Origin: Hydrogenimonas sp. SS33
GTDB lineage: Bacteria > Campylobacterota > Campylobacteria > Campylobacterales > Hydrogenimonadaceae
Reading direction: 5' to 3'
Length of the DNA: 64,000 nucleotides
NCBI RefSeq assembly: GCF_040436365.1
Contig: NZ_AP026369.1
Location: 372,001-436,000, forward strand
Part shown: positions 8,383-23,751 of the stretch, one piece after another
Position numbering within the stretch: position 1 is the first letter of the stretch
How the letters are laid out: each line of letters opens with the position of its first letter
Notes under the pieces: model-generated
What the model was told of the DNA's origin: nothing
Databases searched by the model: none
What the model saw: only the letters and a program-made list of their open reading frames with translations
Position numbers and translations under genes: made by a program

Positions 8383-9499
8383 AATCCTCGTAACCGAAGG
8401 TCCTGACGATCTTCAGAACATTGTCCTTGGTCCAGATGGCAATGGCGGGGTGCGGTACGCCGTTGAAGGTGGTGCTTTTGACCATCGTGTAGTGAATCTG
8501 GTCTTCGAAAACGATCTTGTCCCCGATCTTCAGCGGTTCGCTGAAGCTGTAGTCGCCCATGATGTCGCCGGCGAGGCAGGTGTTGCCGCCGAGGCGGTAG
8601 GTGTAGGGCTTTTCGCCGGGTTTGCCCGCCCCGCGTACCTCCGCGCGGTAAGGCATGGCGAGGGTGTCGGGCATATGGGCTTCGGCGCTCACGTCCAGAA
8701 TGGCGATATCCATGCCGTTGTGGACGATGTCGAGCACTGACGCCACCAGAGGCCCGGTCTGCCACCCCACCGCTTCGCCGGGCTCCAGATAGACCGTTAT
8801 ATCGCCGTGGCGAGCTTTGAAGCCGCGGATCACTTCGATGAGGCGCTTTACGTCGTAATCTTTGCGGGTAATGTGGTGGCCGCCGCCGAAGTTGACCCAC
8901 TCCAACTGGCCGATATAGTCGCCGAACTTCTCTTCGAAAGCCGCCAGCACCCCCTCCAGCGCATCCACATTCTGCTCGCACAGGGCGTGAAAGTGCAAGC
9001 CGTCCAGCTCTTCGAGAATCTCGGGGTCGAAATTCTCCAGTGTGGTACCAAGCCGGCTGTAGGGGGCACAGGGATTGTAGAGGTCCACCGGAGCCGAGGA
9101 GAATTCGGGGTTGACCCGAATCCCGCAGGAGATGGCGGGGTTGGCCTCTCTCGCTTTTTTCAGAAAACGCCTCACCTGCGCCGGCGAGTTGAAGACCAGA
9201 TGGTCGCTCAGCCGTGCGATCTCTTCGATCTCCTCTTCCTTGAAGGCGGGCGAATAGGTATGCACCTCCTTGCCCATCTCCTCCCGGCCAAGACGCGCTT
9301 CGTGCAGGCCGCTGGCGCTGGTGCCGGCCAGGTAGCGCCCCACCAGGTCGAAAGTGCTCCACATGGCAAACCCCTTCAGCGCCAGCAGAATCTTCGCACC
9401 ACTCTCTTTCTGAACATGGTCCAGAATTTTCAGATTGCGCTCCAACAGCGCTTCTTCGCAGACATAACAGGGCGTCGGAATGACGGAAAGGTCGAGCAT
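8363..9499 (-). CDS. nspC: carboxynorspermidine/carboxyspermidine decarboxylase
   Basis: PLP-dependent alanine-racemase-fold decarboxylase that makes (nor)spermidine from its carboxylated precursor. 378 residues, normal length. The PLP lysine lies in ILLALKGFAMWS, HFHALCEQNVDALE and WVNFGGGHHITRKDYD form the phosphate and substrate site, and LGGNTCLAGD carries the partner-subunit cysteine. The dehydrogenase that makes its substrate is at 22534-23751, so both alternative-route genes are in the window but not in one operon. Confidence 0.95.
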   Translation of the reverse strand: MLDLSVIPTPCYVCEEALLERNLKILDHVQKESGAKILLALKGFAMWSTFDLVGRYLAGTSASGLHEARLGREEMGKEVHTYSPAFKEEEIEEIARLSDHLVFNSPAQVRRFLKKAREANPAISCGIRVNPEFSSAPVDLYNPCAPYSRLGTTLENFDPEILEELDGLHFHALCEQNVDALEGVLAAFEEKFGDYIGQLEWVNFGGGHHITRKDYDVKRLIEVIRGFKARHGDITVYLEPGEAVGWQTGPLVASVLDIVHNGMDIAILDVSAEAHMPDTLAMPYRAEVRGAGKPGEKPYTYRLGGNTCLAGDIMGDYSFSEPLKIGDKIVFEDQIHYTMVKSTTFNGVPHPAIAIWTKDNVLKIVRTFGYEDFRNRLS

Positions 9500-9553
9500 G
9501 GTAGTCCTTTGAAATGTTGCGTAATTTTACCTAAGCCTTATGGAATTGGCTCT

Positions 9554-9722
9554 CTATTCGCAAAAACTATTTACCCCGATATTGATAAAATAGATCTTCT
9601 CGTCAATGACAACGATGTCGATGACAACGCGATACTGCATATTGATGGATAAGCTGTAGAACTCCCGCAATCTTCTCTGACGTTTGCGAAGCCTGAGAGA
9701 AGGGTGTTTACCTAATCATCAT
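9554..9722 (-). pseudogene. remnant of a RelE-type toxin gene
   Basis: Reading leftward, a frame ending at the stop 9556-9554 gives HPSLRLRKRQRRLREFYSL, then SINMQYRVVIDIVV and IYFINIG. This is the C-terminal half of RelE/YafQ-like ribosome-dependent toxins, but a stop precedes it and the N-terminal half is absent. The original start is still visible: AAAGG, then ATGATG at 9722, which meets a stop after four codons, so an internal deletion with frameshift is likely. No antitoxin gene is seen. Such TA scars often border mobile regions. Confidence 0.6.
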
Positions 9723-9733
9723 GTGTCCTTTCA

Positions 9734-9767
9734 GTTATACATTTTAGTATACACCCGATCTATTATA
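9734..9767 (-). promoter_or_regulatory. promoter and likely autoregulatory operator of the decayed toxin gene
   Basis: On the minus strand TATAAT (9767-9762) stands upstream of an inverted repeat TATAC-N6-GTATA (about 9736-9751), followed by the ribosome site and ATG of the toxin remnant. The arrangement fits the self-repressed promoters of type II toxin-antitoxin loci. The -35 box is unclear. Confidence 0.4.
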
Positions 9768-9788
9768 AAAAGATTACGACAGTCAATA

Positions 9789-10017
9789 CATTTGTCATGC
9801 TATTGGGATATGGGCTGTTATCCGAACAAAAAGTACAGATAATGGCTCTGGAGCCAATAGCATGACATGGATGGTAAGGGTTTTTTGAGGGGAAACTCGC
9901 TAAGATTGGAAAAATATGTCATTTTGACATGTTTTGAAAAATAGCACGACATTTTTTGTGTGGTGCTATTTGGGGATATTGAGGGTGAATGGTATAAAGT
10001 GTTCATACAATAAATAG
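9789..10017 (+). repeat. integron-like leader, copy A (candidate attI region with cassette promoter)
   Basis: A 229-base stretch duplicated at 15919-16148. It begins with a perfect 13-base inverted repeat (9794-9806 against 9854-9866) enclosing a second stem that pairs fully as RNA with G-U pairs (GGGCTGTTATC with GATAATGGCTC). Then follow ATGTC-ATTTT-GACAT (near 9918-9932) and AAATAGCA...TGCTATTT. It ends TATAAA (9993-9998, likely -10) and AATAG|TT, where the G at 10017 is the crossover base. No integrase gene is near. It is called attI-like because cassettes start exactly here at both loci. Confidence 0.65.
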
Positions 10018-10359
10018 TTAGGGCGATCTAGAATAATGGATAAACGCGCAGAAGCCTTCATTAAAAAGCTCGATGAGCTGCTCGAAAGGATTGCACGATT
10101 AAAAGGAACATGGTGGTCGTCGAATATGGGTGGTGGCTTCAAGGATACGGTTTCTTTCGAAGCCATTTATACAGAAGCGATTTCTTTAATTTCCACTATT
10201 TACGGAAGATCTGATCCTCACTATCAGAGAATCATCCATTTTTACAATCAAGGCCATCTACACGCATTAGAGCAAACAGAAGGTCTCCTTAAAGGAACAA
10301 AAAGCAATTTGGAATCAGGTTTGATTGACGATTTGAAATCTAAAGTATTAATAGATATT

Positions 10360-11456
10360 TGTCCAGTTTCACCACGTTGTTGATGAAAGAGAAGTAGGGT
10401 TCCATACTGACTTCGAAGAAAGAAGTTGGTAGGCTGAGACATCTCGAATCAAGGCAAAAGAGAGATGAAACAGCACTACCATCGCAATGCGAGGACCAAC
10501 TCGCATGTACGCCAAAGTATACAGAAATCCGGAGCGAGCAATCAAGTGTTGGCTCGACGCTTCGGTGTCAGTGTCCAGACCGTCAGTAAGTGGCGTCATC
10601 GCCAGGAGACGGAAGATCGCAGTAGCCGGCCCCATACGATTCATTATGCATTGAGTGATTTGGAGCGGGAGCTTGTGCGCCTTGTGCGGACCAGTACCTG
10701 GATGCCGCTGGACGATCTGGTAGAGGCCCTGCAGAGTGTCATGCCCCATGCCAGCCGCTCCACGGTTTCTCGGACCCTGAGATCCTTGAAGATCAGCCAG
10801 GTTCCCCAGGAAGAACGTGCCAAAGCAAAAAAGTTCAAAGAGTATGTTCCGGGCTTCGTGCATATGGATGTGACCTATCTTCCCAAGATCGATGGCGTCA
10901 AATACTACCTCTTTGTAGCCATCGACCGGGCGACACGGTTGCTCTATTACAAAGTCTATCGAAGCAAAAGTGCCGCCAGCGCCCTCGATTTTCTCAAAGA
11001 GTGTGAACGCTTCTTTCCATTTACCATCACCCATATTCTGACCGATAACGGGATGGAGTTTACGGATCGCTTCAGCCAGGGACGTAAGGACCCCACCGGC
11101 AATCATCGTTTCGACAAGCTCTGCAGGGCATTCAACATCGAACATCGCCTCACGAAACCCTTTTGCCCGCAAACCAACGGGATGGTCGAACGGGCCAACG
11201 GGCTCATTAAGGAGCGAACCATCAAAATACAGAACTATGAGAATCTGCAGCAGATGATTGCCGATTTGGACAAGTTCCTGCTCTATTATCTCTTCAGCAG
11301 ACGCCATGGAGGTCTCAGAAAAGAACTGAAAGTCAAAACACCCTTTGAAGCACTACACTATTGGTATAATCTGGAACCTGAACTATTCAAAAAATCCCCT
11401 GAGATGTTCGAAGCCGACACATTGCTCTGGCTTGAACAACGTGGTGGAACTTGACA
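10360..11456 (+). mobile_element. IS481-family insertion sequence (1097 bp, complete)
   Basis: The ends are TGTCcAGTTtCACCACGTTG and the inverse of its right end; 20 of 22 terminal bases match, with TGT...ACA tips as in IS481. The flanks carry a 6-base direct repeat GATATT (10354-10359 and 11457-11462). One transposase gene fills the element. The intact ends, exact target duplication and complete ORF suggest a recent insertion. Confidence 0.9.
10465..11454 (+). CDS. IS481-family transposase
   Basis: 329 residues. An N-terminal helix-turn-helix (LARRFGVSVQTVSKWRHRQ, residues 29-47) binds the ends. The integrase-core catalytic residues are Asp135 (FVHMDVTYLP), Asp194 (ILTDNGMEFT) and Glu242 (TNGMVERANG), followed by the usual RRHGGLRKELKVKTPFEAL. 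The stop codon lies inside the right terminal repeat. Codon use and base composition are closer to the chromosome than to the A/T-rich cassettes around it. Confidence 0.93.
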   Translation: MKQHYHRNARTNSHVRQSIQKSGASNQVLARRFGVSVQTVSKWRHRQETEDRSSRPHTIHYALSDLERELVRLVRTSTWMPLDDLVEALQSVMPHASRSTVSRTLRSLKISQVPQEERAKAKKFKEYVPGFVHMDVTYLPKIDGVKYYLFVAIDRATRLLYYKVYRSKSAASALDFLKECERFFPFTITHILTDNGMEFTDRFSQGRKDPTGNHRFDKLCRAFNIEHRLTKPFCPQTNGMVERANGLIKERTIKIQNYENLQQMIADLDKFLLYYLFSRRHGGLRKELKVKTPFEALHYWYNLEPELFKKSPEMFEADTLLWLEQRGGT

Positions 11457-11791
11457 GATATTAAATCTGATTTTTTAGAAACTGCCAACAATCTACTTTC
11501 CGAGGGAGAGAAAGACCCTGCCGCTGTCCTGGCGTGCATAGTGCTTGAGGATTCCTTAAAGCGACTTGCTGCTAAATTCGATGTTAATGAAGCAAAAGAC
11601 AAAGAATTAAGCGTCTCTGCATGCGCTCTTTTTCGTGCTGGTGTTATCGAAAAATCGACAAACCAGTCAATACAAAACTTTAAGAATCTGCGAAATGCAT
11701 CATTACATGCGCAATGGGACCAAGTATCGGCTGAATCAGTTGGTCTATTGCTTACATTCTTGCCAATGTTTATTGAGAAGCATGGAATATA

Positions 11792-11864
11792 GCCCTAACA
11801 ATTCGCTCGTTCGGACGCAAACTACGCTGCGCTTCGTTTGCGCCGCACAGCTTGGTCGTTAGGC
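11792..11864 (+). other. attC site of cassette A1
   Basis: R'' box GCCCTAAC (11792-11799) and R' box GTTAGGC (11858-11864) bracket an imperfect palindrome in which GACGCAAAC faces GTTTGCG. The 5' arm AACAATTCGCTC closely follows the common gammaproteobacterial attC pattern. Crossover falls between G 11858 and T 11859. The R'' box overlaps the stop codon of the HEPN gene. Confidence 0.85.
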
Positions 11865-13422
11865 TGAAACTTCAAAAGGACCTTTTAATGGAAAAAAAAT
11901 ATTGGCAAGATGAAATTAAAGTAGATTATACAGATAGGACATTATTTGGGAATGATGCCGCTGAAGAAGAACAAGAAGAGGTTTTTCTATCTTATGCTTT
12001 AGAACCTGACATAACTACAGATTTTTTGGATCGTGAAAATAAGATACAAGTGGTACGTGCTTTTAAGGGTGAAGGTAAATCAGCGTTATTAAGACTAGCT
12101 AAAAATAAACTTGAAAAAGAAGAAAGAAACCTTGTCATTTCAAATACGGCTGTGTCACTTTCTCCTGTATTAGATTCAATTGACTCTGACGAGTGGACAA
12201 GGAAATGGAAAGAAAAATTATTAAATTTGATAGCAAATGAAATTGGTTCTCGTATTGGGCTTGCATTTTCTGACGATGCCATTAGTTTGGTCGAAGAAGC
12301 TGAAGAAAATGGATTTAAACAAAAGTCATTTGTTTCAACAATTGCAGATAGACTTAAAACAAAAAATATTCCTATTGAAAAAATAAGAAGTGGGGTTAAA
12401 AATCCTGAAGCCTTATTAAAAAGATGGCTAAAAGATGGTGCAGATACTTGGCTAATTATCGATGATATTGATCAAAATTTTCAAAATATCGAAAAAAATA
12501 GAATTAAAGTTGCTAGTTTTTTTACAGCCTGTAGACAAGTCGCAGCAGCAATTCCTGAAGTTCGTTTTCGTTTATCGGTTAGACCAAATGTTTGGAAAAT
12601 CATTAAACGAGAGTATGAAGCATTATCTCATGTTGAGCAATATATACAAGATTTAAAATGGTCACTTGATGATATTGAAGCATTAATTGTAAAACGTGTA
12701 GAAGGTTATTTAATCAGACACGACACTTGGGAAGATGCAAAAAAACTGCTTTCAAAAAAATCTAATAGACAACGTGAACAACTTCTTTCATTAGTTTTTG
12801 AAGAGCCCATGCCTTGGGGTAAACAAAGAACTCGTCCTGCAAAAATCATTCTTTATACTTTGTCTCGCCATCGGCCAAGATGGCTAATTGAACTTTAAAG
12901 ATAAAATATACTTCTCTGATATAGATAATATTTTAGAAGATTTTGGAAAACGTAGGATTGACGATACTATTGCAGAATTCAAATCTCAGTGTCCAGACAT
13001 AGAGGACTTATTGTCAGCCTTTGCCAACCAAGATGAAAGATATTCTACAGCCGATTTACTAACAACAATAACCAATCGAATTCTTCAGGGGACTAATCTA
13101 AAAATTGAAGGAGTTTTAGGCTCCCCTTCCAATAAAGAAGTTGCACATTTTTTGTATAGTATAGGGTTTTTGACAGCAAGACGAGATAATCCTGATGGTT
13201 CTTATGACCATATCTCTTTTGATATGGAACCAACTTTATTGAAATCGAGAACGAACATTGATCAAGGTGTGTCTTGGGAGATTCACCCCGTTTTCAGACA
13301 AGCTTTACGATTAAAGAACATTCAAACTAAACAACAAGCAAAGCATGCAAAAAAAAGAAAAGTCTAACAAATCGTCGCACACCAATAAATGCCTTGCGGG
13401 CATTTATTGGTAAACTCAAACG
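11859..13422 (+). mobile_element. integron gene cassette A2 (Sll1717-type ATPase)
   Basis: The cassette starts TTAGGC after the A1 crossover and ends at G 13422. Its start matches the complement of its own R'' box GTCTAAC (13362-13368) at 6 of 7 positions. The content is strongly A/T-rich relative to flanking chromosome, a sign of transfer. It holds one frameshifted gene. Confidence 0.7.
11888..13367 (+). pseudogene. P-loop ATPase of the Sll1717 type, frameshifted
   Basis: ATG 11888 follows AAAGGA at good spacing. The first frame (336 residues, to 12898) has LFGNDAAEEE near residue 19, a Walker A loop KGEGKSALLRL (Lys64) and Walker B LIIDDID (189-195). It stops just after RPRWLIEL. The second frame continues at once (NFKDKIYFSDIDNILEDFG, to 13367) with the region expected next in this family. 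Loss of two bases, or gain of one, near 12895-12900 explains the break; the joined protein is about 490 residues. Related ATPases are often found near anti-phage genes. A sequencing error or programmed frameshift cannot be excluded. Confidence 0.7.
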
Positions 13423-13428
13423 TTAACT
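13362..13428 (+). other. attC site of cassette A2
   Basis: R'' box GTCTAAC (13362-13368) and R' box GTTAACT (13422-13428). Between them lies a 13-bp perfect stem ACCAATAAATGCC/GGCATTTATTGGT around a 5-base loop. Crossover falls after G 13422. It has no T-run, so it is not read as a terminator. The R'' box overlaps the stop codon of the ATPase gene, as in A1. Confidence 0.7.
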
Positions 13429-13465
13429 TCTCAACCCAACAAAAACAACAAATAGCCACCATTCT
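13423..13465 (+). repeat. right flank of integron-like locus A
   Basis: After the last crossover, TTAACTTCTCAACCCAACAA and the next ~23 bases closely match the sequence after the attC of locus B (18128-18171). Left leader and right flank together would be the empty platform. From here to 13530 no gene is seen; an AGGAG at about 13520 serves the DUF2130 gene. Confidence 0.65.
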
Positions 13466-13530
13466 CCCCACTCCCCCACATTTCCGTTAAAATACTCCAA
13501 AACCCTCATTCACAGCATACAGGAGCCGCC

Positions 13531-14853
13531 ATGTCCACATCGACCACCATCCAGTGCCCCAACTGCGGCACACTCATCGATATCGACGCCATCTTCTACA
13601 AGCAGGTAGAAGCCAAGTTCAAAGAGCAGCAGATCGCCGAGCGGCGGAAGCTGCAGAAGGAGCTGGAGGAGAAGCGTCAGGAGTACAAGGCCCATCTCGA
13701 CGCACTGCGGGCCAGAGAGGCACAGTTCAAAGAGGAGAAAGAGCGCTTCGACGAGGAGCTGCGCCGGGCGACTAGGGAACAGCTGCGCAAAGAGCGGGCG
13801 AAGTTGACCGAGGAGCTCAAGGGCCAGCTGGCCAAAGAGCAGGCCGAAGCGATGGCCCTGATGCAAAAAGAGCTGGAGGAGAAATCGAAGCAGAACCAGG
13901 AGCTCTCCGCGGCCAAGATCGAGATCGAACGGCTCAAGCGCGAAAAAGAGGAGCTGGCCCTCAAGGCCAAGGCCGAAGCCGAAGCGGAGCTCAACAAGCG
14001 CCTCGCCGAAGAGAAGGCCAAGGTGCAAAAGGCCCTCGACGAGATGGCGGCGAAGAAGCTCAAGGAGATCGAAGAGGCCCAGGCCCTCAAGCTCAAAGAA
14101 AAAGACGAACAGCTCGAACAGCTCAAGCGCTCCCTCGAAGACGCCAAGCGCAAGGCGGAGCAGGGGAGCATGCAGGTGCAGGGAGAAGCGCTGGAGCTGG
14201 CCATCGAGGGGTGGCTGCGTAGTCAGTTTCCTTTCGATAACGTCGAGGAGGTCAAAAAGGGGGCCTTCGGTGCCGACTGCATTCAGACCGTGCATACCCG
14301 CGACGCCCAGAACTGCGGCGTGATCTGCTACGAATCCAAGAACACCAAAGCCTGGAGCTACGCCTGGATCGGCAAGCTCAAGCAGGATATGCTCAAGGCC
14401 GGGGCCGATATCGGGGTGCTGGTGAGCGCGGTCTATCCTCCGGGCATGGAGCGGATGGGATGGGTGGATGGCATCTGGGTCTGCTCCCTTGAAGAGTTCA
14501 AAGGCTCGGCGGCTTTGCTGCGCGAAAGCCTGATCCGCGTCCACCAAGCGATGCAGCGGGAGGAGAACAAGGCCGACAAGATGAGCCTGCTCTACAACTA
14601 CCTCACCGGCAACGAGTTTCAGATGCAGCTGCGGGCCATCGTCGATGGCTTCATGCAGATGCAGAGCGAGCTCGACAAAGAGAAACGCTCCCTCATGGCC
14701 GCCTGGAAACGCCGCCAGAAGCTCATCGACAGTGTCCTGGCCAACACCACAGAGATGTATGGAGCCCTCCAGGGCATCGCCGGGGGGAACGCCCTGCCGA
14801 CGATCGACGTGCTTGAGCTGCCGGAGGAGCCGGAAGATGAAGAGGCCGAATAA
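13531..14853 (+). CDS. DUF2130 domain protein with long coiled coil
   Basis: 440 residues. The N-terminus has one CPNC pair (QCPNCGTLIDID). Residues ~25-225 are charged heptads of a long coiled coil. From ~225 comes the DUF2130 domain (GEALELAIEGWLRSQFP, GADCIQTVHTR, CYESKNTKAWS, WIGKLKQDM), predicted as a restriction-endonuclease-like fold. Role unknown. ATG 13531 follows an AGGAG. Its composition is chromosomal, so it is not part of the cassettes although it adjoins locus A. Confidence 0.85.
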   Translation: MSTSTTIQCPNCGTLIDIDAIFYKQVEAKFKEQQIAERRKLQKELEEKRQEYKAHLDALRAREAQFKEEKERFDEELRRATREQLRKERAKLTEELKGQLAKEQAEAMALMQKELEEKSKQNQELSAAKIEIERLKREKEELALKAKAEAEAELNKRLAEEKAKVQKALDEMAAKKLKEIEEAQALKLKEKDEQLEQLKRSLEDAKRKAEQGSMQVQGEALELAIEGWLRSQFPFDNVEEVKKGAFGADCIQTVHTRDAQNCGVICYESKNTKAWSYAWIGKLKQDMLKAGADIGVLVSAVYPPGMERMGWVDGIWVCSLEEFKGSAALLRESLIRVHQAMQREENKADKMSLLYNYLTGNEFQMQLRAIVDGFMQMQSELDKEKRSLMAAWKRRQKLIDSVLANTTEMYGALQGIAGGNALPTIDVLELPEEPEDEEAE

Positions 14854-14873
14854 TTAATCCGGTCTGTCCCGCC

Positions 14874-15713
14874 TCATTCAGCGGTTGTGGTTTCCGGTTC
14901 GGGTGCTTTGGAAGCCTTGCCCTCCCTGATACGGTCGAAAAAGAGCACGCTGACGGTAATCGGCGCCATGGCGGTGACGATCTCGAGAAGGCCGCCGACG
15001 ATCCCTGCGGTTATCGCCGCCGCCTGAAGGTTGTGGAAGACGGCGACCGCTACCCCCGCGGCGGCGGCCGTGACGACCACGAGCATCAGGATGACGATGA
15101 TGATGGAGACGATGTACCCCAGATAGTGTTTGAAGTATCGCCAGGAAGCGGCGATGCTTAAAGCCTCCTGTGGGCGGTACAGGGGCCTGAGATAGATGGC
15201 GATGGTTCTCGAGAAACCGCCTTCGGCGACGGCCATGCCGTAGTAGTAGGGCACGGTATAGATGAGGTAGAGAAATGCCACGAGGAAGATGGCTGCCGCG
15301 ATGAAAGAGGGGAGTAAAGATACGACCCACACAATGGCAAAGAAGACAAAAGCGTAAACGAAGGTGCTGATGAGAATTCCCATGTAGATTCCAAAAAGCG
15401 AAGGAAACGTCTTGCCAAGCGGCATTCCGGCGAAGAGAGCCTTGGCCTTCTCCTTGTCCCATCCGCTCTCCAGAAAGGCGCGGGCGACCCCCAGCATGAC
15501 GGGAACGGCGAAGAAGCCGACGATAAAGATGCCGATGTTGCTCAGGGAGCCGGCGGGGTTCGTGTCCGCCCCGTTGATGACTGCGGCAAATCCCGCCATG
15601 TTGGCGACGTATAAGACGATCGCATAGGGGATGAAGATGGCGAAGAAGAGCCCCTTCCTCGACCAGAGCACGGCAACGGAGCCTAGCACGGCATTGTAGA
15701 CGTCACGATACAT
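14874..15713 (-). CDS. polytopic inner-membrane protein of unknown function
   Basis: 279 residues with about six hydrophobic segments (near 22-45, 62-80, 107-135, 138-160, 205-230 and 235-260) and a charged, Pro/Glu-rich tail. A middle loop holds SFPxxxY-like aromatic residues but no known motif. It resembles the broad class of uncharacterised permease-like proteins (YIP1/DUF975 shape) without a firm match. Single gene between DUF2130 (convergent) and locus B. Confidence 0.65.
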   Translation of the reverse strand: MYRDVYNAVLGSVAVLWSRKGLFFAIFIPYAIVLYVANMAGFAAVINGADTNPAGSLSNIGIFIVGFFAVPVMLGVARAFLESGWDKEKAKALFAGMPLGKTFPSLFGIYMGILISTFVYAFVFFAIVWVVSLLPSFIAAAIFLVAFLYLIYTVPYYYGMAVAEGGFSRTIAIYLRPLYRPQEALSIAASWRYFKHYLGYIVSIIIVILMLVVVTAAAAGVAVAVFHNLQAAAITAGIVGGLLEIVTAMAPITVSVLFFDRIREGKASKAPEPETTTAE

Positions 15714-15918
15714 TGGGTTCCTTTTTTGGGAAGATTATCTGGTGCTCACCCGGAAGGGTAGAAAGCGGTATGACAATTTAACACAAATCAAAATATTAGG
15801 CAACATTCAAATTTCAAGCCCTGACCCCATTGGCGCTACACTGAGCGTAGGGATGCATACTCCGAAATCCATTATTTTCACTCAGGCAAAGAGGATAGGG
15901 CAACCTCCGATATCAGCA
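15714..15918. other. intergenic region upstream of locus B
   Basis: No gene is supported. The sequence becomes A/T-rich leftward of the leader. A short imperfect hairpin (GCGCTAC...GTAG, near 15833-15851) is present. No toxin remnant like the one before locus A is seen, so the two loci lie in different surroundings. Confidence 0.4.
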
Positions 15919-16148
15919 CATTTTGTCATGCTATTGGGAGATGGGCTGTTATCCGAACAAAAAGTACAGATAATGGCTCTGGAGCCAATAGCATGACATA
16001 GAAAACAAGGATATTTTGAGGGAAAACTCGATAGGATTGAAAAAATATGTCATTTTGACATATTTTGGAAAATAGCAGGACATTTTGGATGTAATGCTAT
16101 TTAAAGATTTTAAGGGTAGTTGGTATAAAGTATTCATACATTAAATAG
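15919..16148 (+). repeat. integron-like leader, copy B (candidate attI region with cassette promoter)
   Basis: Second copy of the 9789-10017 leader. The 13-base inverted repeat is identical (15925-15937 and 15985-15997), as are the inner stem and its 15-base loop. The later hairpins differ in sequence but keep their pairing (AAATAGCA...TGCTATTT). The -10-like TATAAA is at 16124-16129, and the crossover G at 16148. Conservation is highest in the first 75 bases. The predicted transcript start (~16136) lies just before the retron RNA. Confidence 0.65.
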
Positions 16149-16305
16149 TTGTGCTAAAAATTATTAATTTTATGATAGAATACCGTGGAACCTTATTATT
16201 TAACTTTTCGTTGTTGCTTCTGCAACGAGTAGAAAAAGGATACAGGGTATTCTTCCTTTCAATAATGCTATAAAATAGCTTGTAAAAAGTAAGAGCTTAG
16301 CATAA
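16149..16305 (+). ncRNA. putative retron msr-msd RNA
   Basis: TTGTGCTAA (16149-16157, a1) can pair over nine bases with TTAGCATAA (16297-16305, a2), the terminal stem expected of a retron RNA. Inside, AGAATACC pairs with GGTATTCT over ~65 bases. Within that, TCGTTG pairs with CAACGA around a 9-base loop. A GCTAT-AAA-ATAGC hairpin lies before a2. It ends 30 bases before the RT start codon, the usual place. The branch guanosine cannot be fixed by eye. Confidence 0.55.
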
Positions 16306-16335
16306 GTTTAAGTGAAAGTAATAAGGTTTCTTCCT

Positions 16336-18075
16336 ATGAATGAGTTAGAAATATTTTATAATGAAAATAAAAAACTTTTTGAATGGTCTTTACATTTAAT
16401 TCGTCATGATAAATACCAACATAAACAAATTACAAAAAAGAGTGGAGACAAAAGAAACCTTAATATTCCACCAATCCAAGTAAAAATTACTCAAAAAAAA
16501 CTTTGTAGTCTTTTAAATTCTATATATATCCCTTCTAAATCTGTTCACGGTTTTATAAAATCCAACAATAATGATCATCGAACAATATATTCGAATGCAA
16601 AAGTGCACATAAAAAAAAGAGTTGTTATCAATATAGATATATCAAATTTCTTTGATAGTATCAATTTTGGAAGAGTTAGGGGGATGTTTTTAAAAAGTCC
16701 ATTTAATCTAAATAAGAAACTAGCAACAAAATTTGCTCAACTAACAACTTATAATAATTCATTACCACAAGGTGCACCAACTTCGCCAGTCATATCAAAT
16801 ATAATATGTCGAAAAATGGATCATGAACTTATAAGATTTGCTAGACAAAATAAATTAATTTACACTCGTTATGCAGACGATTTAACATTTTCGACAAATA
16901 AGGAAATTGATGAAACAACAATTATTAATTCTCTTGAAGATATTATTATATCAAACGGTTTTGCAATCAACTCTAATAAAACGCGTGTGCAATATTCAAA
17001 TCAATCACAAATAGTAACTGGTTTAAAAGTTAATCGAAAGGTAAATGTTTCAAGAAAATATATTAGAACAATTAGAAGCATGTTGTATAGTTGGCTTAAT
17101 AAAGGATTAGAAAATGCAGCTGAAGAGCATTTTACTTTGCATTGCAAACAACCCGAAAAATACAAAAAAAGCAAAGAAGAGAGTTTCAAAAATAGTTTAT
17201 TGGGAAAAATTAATTTTTTAAGCCAAATAAGAGGAAAAGATGATGCTATTTATTTAAAATATTTATATACTTATTATTTAATAGATAGTAATTTTATACT
17301 AAATAAAAAGCTAGACTTTTTTGAAAAATTTGAATTGTATAATATTACACAAGAAAGAGCTAACATTCTTTTTAACCATATATATGATTCTATATTAATT
17401 TTTACCGAGGGTATTACGGATATTATATATATAAAAGAAGCTTTAAAATTTTTTCAAAATAAAAGTCAATTTCTAAACTTAAAATTAAGGTTTGCTTATT
17501 TCGGTGGCTACGCTGATCTGATTAAAATTCACAGAGCATTATATGACGATTCCATTAAAAAGACAGGAAAATTACAAGATATAGATATTGCAAACATTAG
17601 GCACTGTTTATTACCATATGTTAGGAATGATAGTAAATTTTGTTTTGTATTAGATGCAGATGATCCCGGTATAATTAATTACTTTAAAAAACTTAAAACA
17701 TATAATCATTTTTTGATTGATATTGAAAATCAAGGATATATAGAAAAACTTGTAGAATTTGAAAAAATTAAAACTATTATAAAAAAATATGGATATAAAA
17801 TTGATATAAATAGAACAGGACTTAAAAAAGACACCAAAAAGAAACTTGAGGAATATTTACAAAAAAGTAAATATCAAAAGTACAAGAATATTTCTGCAGT
17901 TTCAAACTATATTGCCTATGGTCAAAAAATACTGGAGAAAACATTTCTTGCAAAACAAATTTCAAAAACTAATAATGTAGATTATAGTAAATTTGAAAAT
18001 TTATTTAAATTTTTAGAGAAATTGCAATTTAATTATATACACCCAAAAAAATTATGCTGTAATTCCATATATTAA
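16336..18075 (+). CDS. retron reverse transcriptase fused to a TOPRIM domain
   Basis: 579 residues from ATG 16336 (AAGG nine bases upstream); GTG 16312 in frame would add eight. RT landmarks are the retron-specific NAKVH (residues 87-91, the NAxxH motif of region X), NIDISNFFDSI, QGAPTSPVISN (145-155), catalytic YADD (179-182) and VTGLKVN (227-233, the VTG motif of region Y). The C-terminal half has TEGITD (357-362) and FVLDADDPG (~438-446), the Glu and Asp-x-Asp of a TOPRIM nuclease fold as in OLD proteins. RT-TOPRIM fusions are known as a retron subtype in which the fused domain is the effector. Strongly A/T-rich, hence acquired. Likely anti-phage. Confidence 0.87.
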   Translation: MNELEIFYNENKKLFEWSLHLIRHDKYQHKQITKKSGDKRNLNIPPIQVKITQKKLCSLLNSIYIPSKSVHGFIKSNNNDHRTIYSNAKVHIKKRVVINIDISNFFDSINFGRVRGMFLKSPFNLNKKLATKFAQLTTYNNSLPQGAPTSPVISNIICRKMDHELIRFARQNKLIYTRYADDLTFSTNKEIDETTIINSLEDIIISNGFAINSNKTRVQYSNQSQIVTGLKVNRKVNVSRKYIRTIRSMLYSWLNKGLENAAEEHFTLHCKQPEKYKKSKEESFKNSLLGKINFLSQIRGKDDAIYLKYLYTYYLIDSNFILNKKLDFFEKFELYNITQERANILFNHIYDSILIFTEGITDIIYIKEALKFFQNKSQFLNLKLRFAYFGGYADLIKIHRALYDDSIKKTGKLQDIDIANIRHCLLPYVRNDSKFCFVLDADDPGIINYFKKLKTYNHFLIDIENQGYIEKLVEFEKIKTIIKKYGYKIDINRTGLKKDTKKKLEEYLQKSKYQKYKNISAVSNYIAYGQKILEKTFLAKQISKTNNVDYSKFENLFKFLEKLQFNYIHPKKLCCNSIY

Positions 18076-18077
18076 TA

Positions 18078-18133
18078 GCACAACAAAACCTTGCACCGAA
18101 CAGTAATCCTGTCGGTGAAGTCAGTCGTTAAAC
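18078..18133 (+). other. attC site of cassette B
   Basis: R'' GCACAAC (18078-18084) and R' GTTAAAC (18127-18133, fits GTTRRRY). The 56-base site folds with CACCGAACAG against CTGTCGGTG, leaving one unpaired A. Such an extrahelical base is what integron integrases use to pick the strand. Crossover is after G 18127. It is the shortest of the three sites. Confidence 0.75.
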
Positions 18134-18171
18134 ATCTTAACCCCACAAAAACAACAAAAAGCCACCATCTT
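18128..18171 (+). repeat. right flank of integron-like locus B
   Basis: TTAAACATCTTAACCCCACA and the next ~24 bases match 13423-13465 with few differences, and similarity fades after GCCACCATCTT. Together with the leader it defines the duplicated platform. No gene lies between here and the zinc-ribbon gene that ends at 18219. Confidence 0.65.
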
Positions 18172-18218
18172 TGGGACCGTCAGAAATTTTGTGGGGAAAG
18201 GCTCAGGCGATAAAATCA

Positions 18219-19307
18219 CTACCCCTGCAACTGCTGTAGCCAGGCTGCCACCTTGGGCCAGTTGAAAGCCAGAATCATCAAAACGATCGCCAGACCTATC
18301 AGGGCGATTTTCCAGTAGCTGACGGGCCAGTCGCCGGCGATTTCGCCGCTGGTGCCGTCGATGACGAAGCGGTACTCTTTGCCTTTGTATCGAAAGGCGT
18401 TGCTCCAGATGGGGCGGAGGGTGTATTCGCAGCTTTCACCCGAATAGTGGGTTTGGATGGCGTAGATGCGTTGTTCGTCGCCGCCGATGGCTCTTCGGAC
18501 GTCTTGGCGGATGCGGTTTTGCATTGTCTCTTTTGCCTCCTTGTAGGAGGCGAGGGGGGTGCGGCTGTATTCGTAGGCGTTAAAGCCGCAACAGTAGCGT
18601 TCGTCTGCCGTGCAGCGTTTGGCGCTCTCTGGAAAGGGGAGCTTTTCGAGCAGGTCAGGGGGAAGGTTTTCGGCGGCGGGGACGGGGAGGTCGCGGAAAT
18701 CTCTGGCGACCCGGCCAGAAACCGGTGTCCAGCGGATGCGGCGCTCCTGCTCCTGGACGACCTGCTCCCGGCCGTTGACGATGCGCCTTCTTGGCACCGT
18801 TACATAGTAGGCATCCCCGCGCTCTCCTTTGTAGAGGCTGACGGTATCGGCGTCGAAGAGCCACCATGGGAGCCAGTAGCCCTTCATTTCGCTTTGGGTG
18901 TCCACCAGGTGTTTCAGGGCGCGGGGTGCGAGCCACAGTGAGCCGATCCAGTCGGCGAAGATCTTCTGCGCCTCTTTTTGCGATATTTGAAACGGTAGCA
19001 GGCTTTCGGGGCGGTAGGGGGCTTTGGGGTCGATGAGCGCCGGGGTGTCACAGTAGGGGCAGAGTGTGGCGAAAGCGCCTTGGGGTATCTCGTAGCCGGC
19101 GCCGCATTTGGGGCAGTGGATGGGTGTGGGAGCCGCGGTGACGGCCGTGTCCCGGTATGCGCTCAGGGGAAGTTTGGGGCCGGTGCTTTGGCAGGGCACC
19201 TCTTCATTGCGTTCACAGTAGTCGCAGTGCAACCCTCCGTCTTTTGGCGAGAAGTGCATTTCGGCACCGCATCCGGGGCAGGGGTAGTGGCGTACCTCCG
19301 TACCCAT
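18219..19307 (-). CDS. zinc-ribbon membrane-anchored protein
   Basis: 362 residues. Two zinc ribbons open the protein (CPGCGAEM...CDYCE at ~10-33 and CPKCGAGY...CPYCD at ~64-86). A long soluble middle follows, then one hydrophobic segment near 335-355 that would anchor it in the membrane. The middle resembles the DNA-helicase-PriA-like zinc-finger/TM proteins found with SPFH and TelA proteins; function unproven. It starts one base after the SPFH gene and is the last gene of the operon. Confidence 0.75.
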   Translation of the reverse strand: MGTEVRHYPCPGCGAEMHFSPKDGGLHCDYCERNEEVPCQSTGPKLPLSAYRDTAVTAAPTPIHCPKCGAGYEIPQGAFATLCPYCDTPALIDPKAPYRPESLLPFQISQKEAQKIFADWIGSLWLAPRALKHLVDTQSEMKGYWLPWWLFDADTVSLYKGERGDAYYVTVPRRRIVNGREQVVQEQERRIRWTPVSGRVARDFRDLPVPAAENLPPDLLEKLPFPESAKRCTADERYCCGFNAYEYSRTPLASYKEAKETMQNRIRQDVRRAIGGDEQRIYAIQTHYSGESCEYTLRPIWSNAFRYKGKEYRFVIDGTSGEIAGDWPVSYWKIALIGLAIVLMILAFNWPKVAAWLQQLQG

Positions 19308-19308
19308 C

Positions 19309-20391
19309 TTACGCTCCCGGAGGCGGGGGTGGCGGCGGAGTGGCGCCGAAAAGGTCCGGAAGCGCCTTTTTGGCCGGCTCCCACCCGGAAAAGCCCTCTT
19401 TCCAGAGGTAGTCGGCGGGTTTGAGTTCGCCGGAGGCTACCATTTTTCGCAGGGTGGTTTCGTCGAAAGGGCCGCTGCTTTGGCCGTTTTTCGCCACATA
19501 CCAGAACGCTGCCGGGGGCGGGGGAGGGGGTGTGGCGCCCTTTGTGCCGTGCCCCCTGAAACTTTCGGCCATCTGCTGTGCCATGGCAAACCCCATGCCC
19601 ATGCCCGCCGCTTCACTCATGGCACCCCCCTTTTCCAGAGACTGGGCGGCCTGGTATTTCATATGTTCGTCCAGATCGCCGGCGATCGCCTTGGAAGAGC
19701 GGGTGTCGAGGGCCTTCTCCACCTCCGGCGGCAGAGAGATGTTTTCGACCAGTATTTTGGTCAGTTCCAGCCCATACTCTTTGAAGTAGGGAGCGATGCT
19801 TTGGGTGATGTACTCCCCGAAGCGCTCGTAGTTGGCCGCCAGGTCAAGCGCGGGCGTGTCGTCCTGCCCCAGGACCACCGCCAGCTTGGAGACGATGAGG
19901 TTGTCCAGCTGGTCGTCGATCTCGTCGGTGGTGAAGTGGCCGTCGGTGCCGACGATCTCTTTGAGGAATTTGGCCGGGTCTTCGATGCGGATTTCGTAGG
20001 TGCCGAAAGCCCGCAGCCGCACCATGGTAAACTCCGGATCGCGGACCATGATGGGGTTTTGGGTCCCCCATTTGAGGTCGGTGAAGCGCTTGGTGCTGAT
20101 GAAGTAGACCTCCGCCTTGAAGGGGGAGTTGAAGCCGTGGTCCCAGTGCTGCAGGTCAGTCAGGATAGGGAGGTTCTTCGTCTCCAGCTCGTAGGTGCCC
20201 GGCCCCAGAATGTCGGCGATCTCCCCTTCGTTGACGAAGACTGCTTTCTGGGATTCCCGGACGATCAGTTTGGCACCGTATTTGATTTCGTGCCCCTGGC
20301 GCGGAAAACGCCAGACCATCGTGTCATTGCTGGAGTCGACCCACTCGATGACGTCGATGAACTGTCCGCCCAGCCAGTCGAAAAACCCCAT
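19309..20391 (-). CDS. SPFH-domain protein with C-terminal GYF_2 domain
   Basis: 360 residues. Residues ~20-235 match the SPFH/virion-core-like family (YdjI type): WRFPRQGHEIKYGAKLIVRE, VFVNEGEIADILGPGTYEL and TLAxx-like strands. A Gly/Ala/Met linker follows, then Pro runs, and residues ~298-345 form a GYF_2 domain (FWYVAKNGQSSGPFDETTL). The GYF domain probably binds proline-rich partners. Its ATG abuts the stop of telA. SPFH proteins organise membrane patches, so this operon may make an envelope-stress assembly. Confidence 0.82.
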   Translation of the reverse strand: MGFFDWLGGQFIDVIEWVDSSNDTMVWRFPRQGHEIKYGAKLIVRESQKAVFVNEGEIADILGPGTYELETKNLPILTDLQHWDHGFNSPFKAEVYFISTKRFTDLKWGTQNPIMVRDPEFTMVRLRAFGTYEIRIEDPAKFLKEIVGTDGHFTTDEIDDQLDNLIVSKLAVVLGQDDTPALDLAANYERFGEYITQSIAPYFKEYGLELTKILVENISLPPEVEKALDTRSSKAIAGDLDEHMKYQAAQSLEKGGAMSEAAGMGMGFAMAQQMAESFRGHGTKGATPPPPPPAAFWYVAKNGQSSGPFDETTLRKMVASGELKPADYLWKEGFSGWEPAKKALPDLFGATPPPPPPPGA

Positions 20392-21600
20392 TTACCCCTC
20401 CTTCGCGGGTGTTTGGCCCGTTTCGGAAGCCGTGCCGATGCCCTCTCTGGCGCTCTTGACTTTCAGCAGCGCCTCCTTGAGGGCCGCTTCGCTCTTTTGC
20501 AGTTCGCCCAGCGCCTTTTGGCGGGCCTCTTTTCCCTTTTCGGCGATTTCGAGGGAGTCGTTGAGGGTGGCGATGAGGGTTTGGTTGGCCTTTTTGATGC
20601 TTTCGATGTCGTAGACGCCCCGTTCCATCTGTTCGCGCACCTCCCGGTTGGCTTCCCTGAGCCCTTCGGCGTTGCGTTCAAGCAGTTCGTTGGTCAGGTC
20701 GCCCGCCTGTTTGATCGCCCCGGCGGCGGCGTGGCTGCGGAAGATGGTCACGGTCTGCGCCAGCTGGTTGCGCCAAAGCGGCACGGTGTTGACCAGCGTC
20801 GAGCTGATCTTGTTGATGAGGGATTTGTCGTTCTCCTGAATGAGGCGGATACTCGGCAGCGCCTGCATCGCCACCTGGCGCGAAAGGCGCAGGTCATGCA
20901 CGCGGCGCTCCAGGTCGTCGCGGAAGTTGCGCAGCTCCCGCAGGTTCTGGACATCCATCATCTCCCCGCTTTCGGCCTTCTTCTCATACTCGGGGATGAT
21001 CTTCTCCTCAAGCTCCTTGAGTTTCCGCTCTCCCGCTTCGATGTAGAGTTCCAGCTGCCGGAAATACTCCAGGTTGGCGTCGTAGAGTTTGTCCAGGGCG
21101 ATGACATCGGAGGTGAGCTGGGCTTTGTGCTTTTCCAGGTCGGTGGCGATGACATCCAGCTGGTCCCGCACCTCTTCGTAGCGCTGCAGGAAGGTCGCCA
21201 GGGGTTCGGCTTTGCCCAGCAGCTTCTGCCACCAGCTCAGCTTTTTGTTGGGGTTGAGGGAGTCGATATCGAAGCCGCGAATCGCCGCGACCATTTTGTT
21301 GAGGCTCTCTCCCGCGGCGCCGGTATCTTTGTTTTTGACGCCGTCGATCATCCGGTTGGAGATTTCGTCGAGCTTCTCCTGGGCCGTCGAGCCGAAACGG
21401 ATGACGGAGCTGTGGTCGTGAAAATCGATCTCCGCCATCGCTTTTTGGATCTTCTCCTCCTCATCGGGCTGGATGGGGGAGGGGGTTTCACTCTTTGCTT
21501 CGATACTCTTTTCGACACTCTTTTTAAGCGCCTCCGGGACGGTGACGCTCTCCATACCCGCCGCCTCCGGGACGACGGCTTCCTGATTGGTTTTGTTCAT
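20392..21600 (-). CDS. toxic anion resistance protein, TelA/KlaA family
   Basis: 402 residues, mostly helical and coiled coil, matching TelA from about residue 55: VIRFGSTAQEKLDEISNRMI, WWQKLLGKAEPLATFLQRYE, LIQENDKSLINKISSTLVNT and VPLWRNQLAQTVTIFRSHAA. The family is linked to tellurite and colicin resistance in other bacteria; its mechanism is unknown. It sits between xpaC and the SPFH gene with 0-12 bases between genes. The xpaC-telA pair is a recurrent arrangement. Confidence 0.92.
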   Translation of the reverse strand: MNKTNQEAVVPEAAGMESVTVPEALKKSVEKSIEAKSETPSPIQPDEEEKIQKAMAEIDFHDHSSVIRFGSTAQEKLDEISNRMIDGVKNKDTGAAGESLNKMVAAIRGFDIDSLNPNKKLSWWQKLLGKAEPLATFLQRYEEVRDQLDVIATDLEKHKAQLTSDVIALDKLYDANLEYFRQLELYIEAGERKLKELEEKIIPEYEKKAESGEMMDVQNLRELRNFRDDLERRVHDLRLSRQVAMQALPSIRLIQENDKSLINKISSTLVNTVPLWRNQLAQTVTIFRSHAAAGAIKQAGDLTNELLERNAEGLREANREVREQMERGVYDIESIKKANQTLIATLNDSLEIAEKGKEARQKALGELQKSEAALKEALLKVKSAREGIGTASETGQTPAKEG

Positions 21601-21612
21601 GGTTCCTCCTAA

Positions 21613-22449
21613 TTAATCTTTGATCTGTTCCCGCAGGGCATCGATCTGCACATCCAGGTCGAAACGGTCGTTGGCGCGGAGCCGTTCCAACTCCCTGTCG
21701 AAGCGCCGCTGCACCTCCTTTAGAAGCGTGTAGAGCCGTTCGTTGGTCTCTTCGTCGATCCGGCTTTCGTCGACCGCGAGGTACTTTTCGCAGACCTGCT
21801 CTACACCCTCGATGTAGACGGCGAGGAATTTCCTTGCCGTGCGGAGGTCCTTGGGGTCCTCGGCGATGGTGTCGAGCACTTTGCGTGCCTTTTTCACCGC
21901 TGTCGCGATGCCTCGGTGGAGGCGCTCGTCGTGGATCTTTTGGTTGAGGTTCTCGATGCTCTCCAGTGTTTCGGACGCCTCTTCCATGCTTTTGAGGAAG
22001 AGGTCCGGATTGACGTCTTTCATTTGGGGCACTTTGTCGACGCGGGGGTCCGGGCCGTAGTAGAGCAGTGCACCGGCGCCTCCCAGCCCTGCGACGAAGA
22101 GGGCTTTCCACCAGGGCGCGTGGCCCACGGCCCACCCCAGGTAGAAGACGGCGGTGCCAAGCAGCACCGCGCCGACGGTCTTGTAGGGGATTTTTGGGGC
22201 TTTGCATACGGTGGCCTCTTCGTAGTCGATCTGGGCGGCGATGCCCCTGCTCGTCAGCGCGGCGGCGGCAAAAAGCAGGCCGAAGCCCCCCAGTTTGAGC
22301 AGAAAGAGCCGGTAGTGGCCGCCGAAAAGGGAGACGAGCACCGAAAGGGCCAGGGGAAAAAGGAAAAAATAGAGCAGCAGCGCGCCCATCCGGCGTTTGA
22401 GCCGCCGGCCGGTCTGGGCCAGGTCGCCGGAGATCTTTTTCACCGCCAT
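21613..22449 (-). CDS. XpaC-like (5-bromo-4-chloroindolyl phosphate hydrolysis) protein
   Basis: 278 residues. Two or more membrane segments lie near 22-75 and about 100-125 (GAVLLGTAVFYLGWAVGHA), then a helical cytoplasmic domain (NPDLFLKSMEEASETLESIE to the end) matching XpaC. Despite the name, a phosphatase activity is doubtful; the family pairs with TelA. ATG 22449 overlaps the stop of the 24-codon gene upstream (TGATG), so translation should be coupled; longer in-frame starts would read through that gene. Confidence 0.85.
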   Translation of the reverse strand: MAVKKISGDLAQTGRRLKRRMGALLLYFFLFPLALSVLVSLFGGHYRLFLLKLGGFGLLFAAAALTSRGIAAQIDYEEATVCKAPKIPYKTVGAVLLGTAVFYLGWAVGHAPWWKALFVAGLGGAGALLYYGPDPRVDKVPQMKDVNPDLFLKSMEEASETLESIENLNQKIHDERLHRGIATAVKKARKVLDTIAEDPKDLRTARKFLAVYIEGVEQVCEKYLAVDESRIDEETNERLYTLLKEVQRRFDRELERLRANDRFDLDVQIDALREQIKD

Positions 22450-22523
22450 CAGAAACTCACCGCGATCGCCCAGCCGAGGGCGTAGATGATGAAGATCCAT
22501 CCAAATATACGGGCCCACCGCAT
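22449..22523 (-). CDS. 24-residue hydrophobic microprotein
   Basis: MRWARIFGWIFIIYALGWAI followed by AVSF is a single predicted membrane helix. It has its own ribosome site (AAAGGGG, six bases before ATG 22523). It begins 10 bases after the dehydrogenase stop, and its TGA shares a base with the xpaC ATG. Such a fit suggests a real small gene, perhaps a partner of XpaC/TelA, though coding cannot be proven by eye at this length. Confidence 0.5.
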   Translation of the reverse strand: MRWARIFGWIFIIYALGWAIAVSF

Positions 22524-22533
22524 TGCCGCCCCT

Positions 22534-23751
<1,218 letters not shown>

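What the first reader, a model, noticed from the sequence alone, without database searches (positions are those of the whole stretch)
9789..18171. Two integrase-less integron-like loci with a shared leader and right flank, both carrying defence-type cassettes
Seen: loci A and B each have the same ~230-base leader, cassettes beginning at a G|TT crossover, attC-type sites with R''/R' boxes, and the same ~43-base right flank. For all three cassettes the first bases match the complement of the cassette's own R'' box (8/8, 6/7, 7/7), the mark of excision and insertion as circles. Known: integron cassettes need IntI. None is here, and each platform is separate in ordinary chromosome. Inference: dispersed attI-like platforms served in trans, collecting anti-phage genes in a Campylobacterota, where integrons are little described.
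Basis: partly seen in the sequence, partly recalled or inferred. Interest (0 to 1): 0.92.

Follow-up and report, generated by a model that had tools for sequence, protein, structure and literature searches.

The report
Two integron platforms that lost their integrase
Two stretches of a bacterial chromosome are gene-capturing sites (integrons) that have lost their own recombinase gene but kept the landing site, the promoter region and captured genes, one of them an anti-phage retron; similar sites turn up in many related bacteria and are filled with different genes there.

Summary
Loci A and B share a 229-bp leader (87%), a 38-bp right flank (89%), G|TT-bounded cassettes and attC sites that fold. 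The leader is an attI/promoter region: a third copy, 70 kb from A, lies beside and divergent from the genome's only integron integrase (TIGR02249, 419 bits, cut-off 265), which carries an in-frame TAA at codon 71. "Separate platforms in ordinary chromosome" is not supported. A sits at the genus's old integron site, where sister genomes have a leader with an intI stub. The right neighbour of A (DUF2130) and the left neighbour of B are the two sides of one intI-less platform in G040, another family. A and B are best read as one acquired, then duplicated or recombined, platform. Of 47 such sites collected in the order, 6 have full-length intI, 8 remnants, 28 none, 5 lie at contig edges. B and G040 share one intI-less junction yet hold different cassettes; so do six species at one locus. 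This suggests that IntI once acted in trans. Only B carries a clear defence gene (Ec67-type retron); both A cassettes are broken. A new variant of intI-less cassette arrays (CALIN).

The parts
9790..10017 (+). Leader A: attI/Pc region without intI, ending at the crossover AATAAATAG|TT; contains a 70-nt hairpin, a second palindrome AAATAGCACGACA..TGTGTGGTGCTATTT and an extended -10 TGGTATAAA
   Evidence: repeat; third copy beside intI; tree; Pc is inferred from sequence, the strict promoter scan found none
10018..11858 (+). Cassette A1: ORF of unknown function split by an IS481 element
   Evidence: no Pfam, NCBIfam or PADLOC match for the two pieces
10360..11456 (+). IS481-family insertion sequence inside A1; 6-bp target duplication GATATT at 10354-10359 and 11457-11462
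   Evidence: NF033577 225.8 bits (cut-off 224); inverted ends; duplication read from sequence
11793..11864 (+). attC of A1 (R'' CCCTAAC, R' GTTAGGC)
   Evidence: z -4.2
11859..13422 (+). Cassette A2: Sll1717-family P-loop ATPase gene, broken by a frameshift near 12890
   Evidence: NF047389 143 and 74.7 bits in two frames
13362..13429 (+). attC of A2 (R'' GTCTAAC; R' completed by the flank)
   Evidence: z -4.7
13423..13462 (+). Right flank of A, shared only with B
13531..14853 (+). DUF2130 gene; lies right of the intI-less platform in G040 too (87% nt, 92.5% aa)
14874..15713 (-). Membrane-protein-like ORF (279 aa) between DUF2130 and B; no relative found in 17 related genomes
15838..15920 (+). 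Left junction of B (REP-like GAGCGTAGGGATGCATACTCCGAAA plus about 60 bp), shared with G040, where intI would be expected
15921..16148 (+). Leader B: attI/Pc region without intI
16149..18127 (+). Cassette B: complete retron
16187..16331 (+). Predicted retron ncRNA with a1/a2 ends GGAACCTTATT / AATAAGGTTTC
   Evidence: z -4.84; inferred from the fold
16312..18075 (+). Retron reverse transcriptase fused to Toprim (type I-C, Ec67-like)
   Evidence: PADLOC RT-Toprim_I-C 614 bits; nearest solved chain Retron Ec67
18076..18134 (+). attC of B (R'' TAGCACAAC)
   Evidence: (z -6.4)
18128..18168 (+). Right flank of B

Best explanation
A and B are attI+Pc integron platforms of a Campylobacterota type that lost intI. 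They descend from one platform of Nitratifractor type, acquired horizontally with its DUF2130 neighbour into the genus's old integron site between nspC and CASDH, and then doubled (tandem duplication or single-crossover insertion). They work by supplying a landing site and a promoter: cassettes were inserted at AATAAATAG|TT by an integron integrase made elsewhere (here the intI 70 kb away, or a past one) and are transcribed from Pc. Shown: anatomy, attC folds, the intI and its stop codon, synteny, the shared junctions. Inferred: Pc activity, past action of IntI in trans, the duplication step.
For: Third leader beside and divergent from a TIGR02249 intI, as in known integrons. Leaders of A, B and G040 form one clade within the family-f5 (Nitratifractor-type) leaders, away from the own intI-linked leader. 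G040: B-type left junction, leader, cassette, then DUF2130 at 87% nt. G016 and G012: leader with intI stubs beside nspC (E 5e-12 and 5e-9), and CASDH right of the array in G016. B and G040 share an intI-less junction but hold different cassettes. Six species of genus g20 have one intI-less Pc-attI core between the same upstream region and the same downstream gene, with different cassettes; a seventh has the same upstream side on a contig that ends. G186 and G275 have intact intI at another locus than an intI-less platform. The own IntI is 83% identical to that of G319, whose attI is in the clade around A and B.
Against: The only intI of this genome has an in-frame TAA. Seven other closed genomes have platforms and no intI at all. 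Array swapping by homologous recombination through leader and flanks would give the same pattern without IntI. The A leader is of foreign type while its left neighbour is native, so at least one further recombination is needed. The right flank of A and B is not found in G040.
Confidence: 0.55

Rival explanations
1. Dead relics: intI was lost and the arrays have been frozen since; the differing contents date from before the loss or come from homologous recombination. No trans service.
For: The own intI has a nonsense codon; both A cassettes are broken by IS481 and a frameshift; most platforms have no intI nearby, and several closed genomes have none at all; intI loss with stable arrays is known from Xanthomonas (PMC12444791).
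Against: B and G040 share an intI-less junction but not cassettes; six g20 species share one intI-less locus with different cassettes; the retron in B is intact.
Confidence: 0.33
2. The intI-less platforms are themselves mobile units, moved by flanking REP- or MITE-like repeats, which explains dispersal without intI.
For: A REP-like repeat forms the left edge of B and G040; in g20 the module is flanked by inverted copies of AAAGTTAAAAGTTTAGCCC; integron mobilisation by MITE-like flanks has been reported (reference 63 in PMC8618304).
Against: No target duplication or terminal inverted repeats recognised around A or B; the g20 sites are at one orthologous place, not dispersed; intI stubs mark ordinary decay in G001, G012 and G016.
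Confidence: 0.1
3. An ordinary transposon or chance repeats, not integron material.
For: One IS481 element lies inside A1.
Against: The IS is a later insertion with its own target duplication; leader beside intI, attC folds and the own-head rule.
Confidence: 0.02

Closest known systems
Sedentary chromosomal integron (intI-attI-attC array)
   Same: attI-like crossover G|TT, Pc-like promoter, attC cassettes; a third copy of the leader sits beside intI
   Different: A and B have no intI; one or two cassettes each; two leader copies 6.1 kb apart
CALIN (cluster of attC sites lacking integrase)
   Same: attC cassettes without adjacent intI; proposed routes are intI loss, off-target insertion and rearrangement (PMC8618304)
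   Different: Here the attI/Pc leader is kept and present twice; B has only one attC, below the usual threshold of two (PMC12444791)
Integrons of Xanthomonas with inactivated intI and CALINs at other loci (PMC12444791)
   Same: Repeated intI inactivation; intI-less arrays elsewhere in the genome
   Different: The passages read describe those CALINs as attC clusters and mention no attI leader; here orthologous intI-less attI sites carry different cassettes between species
Retron Ec67 (Eco2, type I-C)
   Same: RT fused to Toprim, ncRNA upstream, NAxxH, YADD and VTG motifs
   Different: 295 bits against a 450-bit NCBIfam cut-off for Ec67; carried as an integron cassette

Membership tests
Integron | intI (TIGR02249) next to attI | tested here: not met
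   No intI or remnant upstream of A or B; one at 70 kb with its own leader
Integron | attI: conserved leader ending at a G|TT crossover | tested here: met
   Same leader as beside intI in G000; leaders with full intI in G319 and G225
Integron | attC sites: R''/R' complementary, bottom-strand hairpin with bulged bases | tested here: met
   A1 and B met; A2 folds but without bulges, R boxes open in the minimum-energy fold. No standard attC covariance model was run
Integron | Cassette promoter Pc | tested here: inconclusive
   Extended -10 TGGTATAAA at A and B read by eye; strict sigma-70 scan negative at A
Integron | Recombination by IntI at these sites | not testable with these tools
   Needs an in vivo assay
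CALIN | At least two attC sites, no intI nearby | tested here: inconclusive
   A: met (two attC). B: one attC only
Retron type I-C | RT with NAxxH, YADD, VTG and a Toprim domain | tested here: met
   PADLOC RT-Toprim_I-C 614 bits; motifs read in the sequence
Retron type I-C | msr-msd RNA with a1/a2 upstream | tested here: met
   Fold z -4.84 with closing a1/a2 stem; by structure only
Retron Ec67 family (NF038237) | Score over the curated cut-off of 450 | tested here: not met
   295 bits

The most novel reading that the evidence does not exclude
In Campylobacterota, intI-less Pc-attI platforms are a regular, heritable and horizontally transferred form of integron, kept at fixed loci and restocked in trans by an IntI that comes and goes in the population.
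Probability: 0.3. Interest if true: 0.7.

Novelty: new variant of a known kind. Interest (0 to 1): 0.5.

Why it matters
[quoted passage not shown] If they are restocked in trans, a genome's capture capacity is larger than its intI count suggests, and the platform can outlive its enzyme. The set of orthologous, differently filled intI-less sites makes this testable. It also places an Ec67-type retron as a mobile cassette.

Tried and rejected
Rfam showed no relevant family. The right flank was sought in all fetched loci and found only at A and B. An intI remnant upstream of A, B and G040 was sought and not found (the own IntI was read through its stop for use as a query). The TelA-type gene right of B was tested as a mark of origin: 68-77% identity to both the own genus and f5, so uninformative. 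The 279-aa ORF was sought in 17 relatives: none. Idea rejected: leaders spread by IntI itself, because the leader lies left of the crossover and is not carried by a cassette. A first regex for sites was faulty and was redone. In one search some listed core sites lack a full Pc motif; the 47 sites are the stricter set.

Full report
WHAT IS THERE. The window is bases 372001-436000 of a closed 2.25 Mb genome. Two loci share a 229-nt leader (9791-10019 and 15922-16150, 87%) and a right flank (13425-13462 and 18131-18168, 89%). The flank occurs nowhere else in the genome. The core ACAWTAAATAGTT occurs four times exactly: A, B, and two places about 60 kb and 55 kb left of the window's start. The genus is probably Hydrogenimonas: contigs of G010 and G012 have the lengths of records titled Hydrogenimonas sp..

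THE LEADER IS ATTI PLUS A PROMOTER REGION. The third full copy (L004:6630-6859) stands directly before, and divergent from, a tyrosine recombinase that matches the integron-integrase model TIGR02249 at 418.8 bits (cut-off 265) over positions 1-313. It is the only such gene in the genome. Its frame has one TAA at codon 71, in a stretch where four aligned full-length relatives read TTQNQA. Downstream of that leader comes a cassette whose attC folds with z = -6.9. A fourth, short core (L004:11826) also has a cassette with a folding attC (z -6.2).

CASSETTES. A1 is an unknown ORF split by an IS481 element with a GATATT target duplication. A2 is an Sll1717-family ATPase broken by a frameshift. B is a retron: RT-Toprim type I-C (614 bits), motifs NAKVH, YADD and VTG in the sequence, an upstream RNA that folds with a closing a1/a2 stem, z -4.84, nearest solved relative Retron Ec67. 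In circular form A1 and B obey the own-head rule fully and A2 with one mismatch. As a control, 22 of 50 core sites in this and related genomes have an own-head attC, against 14 of 150 with heads swapped between sites.

WHERE THEY CAME FROM. In G016 (closed, same genus) nspC is followed by a leader with an intI stub, cassettes, then the CASDH gene; G012 has nspC, an intI stub and a leader before its contig ends. The names nspC and CASDH are my reading of the proteins. In G000 the nspC-CASDH interval (9499-22534) holds A, DUF2130, a 279-aa ORF, B and four further genes. A is thus at the genus's old integron site. But leaders A and B do not group with the genus's own leaders. They group with G040 inside the leaders of family f5, which include Nitratifractor records and G319 with a full intI. 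G040 (from memory its length, 2,101,285 bp, is that of Nitratifractor salsuginis; not checked) reads: REP-like repeat and 60 bp as left of B, leader, cassettes, then DUF2130 as right of A (82% and 87% nt). The two sides of one G040 platform are thus the right side of A and the left side of B. The simplest readings are tandem duplication of an acquired platform or single-crossover insertion of one platform into another. I cannot separate these. The duplication itself is inference.

HOW COMMON. A pattern made from the leader core matches 40 of 399 genomes of the order with at most 2 mismatches; some of these are chance hits. intI over the cut-off is in 60 of 399. For 47 unique Pc-attI sites collected here: full-length intI upstream 6 (that of G000 with a stop), remnant 8, none within 1.3-1.7 kb 28, contig edge 5. 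The set was gathered by likeness to A and B, so these are not unbiased rates, and not every site has a proven attC. Closed genomes G002, G016, G040, G146, G176, G196 and G323 have platforms and no intI. G186 and G275 have an intact intI at one locus and an intI-less platform at another.

DOES INTI ACT IN TRANS? Two comparisons speak for past exchange at intI-less platforms. First, B and G040 share the same left junction in place of intI, yet hold different cassettes. Second, in genus g20 six species (L107, L109, L110, L113, L115, L117) share a Pc-attI core between the same upstream region and the same downstream gene, with 0.6-3.5 kb of different sequence between; a seventh, L111, shares the upstream side but its contig ends. 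A convincing own-head attC was found for L117; the one for L107 is weak, for L110 not convincing, and for L109, L113 and L115 none passed. Caveats: the retained leader length varies between these species, so repeated deletion at a repeat is possible, and homologous recombination could swap arrays. In G000 itself the nonsense codon makes present activity doubtful.

VERDICT. A real and well-read observation, with an overstretched inference. It is a variant of known intI-less cassette arrays (routes listed in PMC8618304; intI decay and CALINs at other loci in Xanthomonas, PMC12444791) with the attI/Pc leader kept, transferred and doubled. My paper searches found no description of such platforms in this phylum, but that library lacks most subscription papers.

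Noticed in passing
L056:1191-1230; L063:42-80; L116:1926-1965; also L152, L156, L165: Directly at the crossover some platforms carry a perfect hairpin of about 30 bp (GTTATCTCGGACGCTACGCATCCGAGATAAC and similar), as if a mini cassette or regulatory hairpin.
   Followed up: no
L115:2609 and L116:1935 (genome G336): The same first sequence (TTATCTCGGACGCTACGCATCCG) follows attI at two different platforms of one genome.
   Followed up: no
L056 (JALWBF010000021.1, titled Archaeoglobaceae archaeon): A Hydrogenimonas-like leader on a contig binned as archaeal; probably a misbinned contig, worth care in claims of archaeal integrons.
   Followed up: no
L107, L109, L110, L113, L115, L117: The g20 platforms are flanked by inverted copies of AAAGTTAAAAGTTTAGCCC(TGACCCC) and by TTACATGTAAGGA..TCCTTACATGTAA palindromes, suggesting REP/MITE-type elements around the module.
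   Followed up: partly
window 15795-15870: Left of B: TTTCAAGCCCTGACCCC followed by a REP-like repeat, similar in wording to the g20 scar.
   Followed up: partly
L004:11826-12490: A fourth attI-like core in the genome, with a GIY-YIG-like ORF and an attC of a widespread type (TTGGAGAGAAATA..TATTTCTC), 5 kb from the intI-linked leader.
   Followed up: partly
L098 (G278): Two leaders in tandem, 2.7 kb apart, in one array.
   Followed up: no
window 9793-9867 and 15924-15998: The leader hairpin contains an inner palindrome which in f5 leaders reads GTTATCCGAACA..TGTTCAGATAAC; its role (intI promoter control or IntI binding) is unknown.
   Followed up: no
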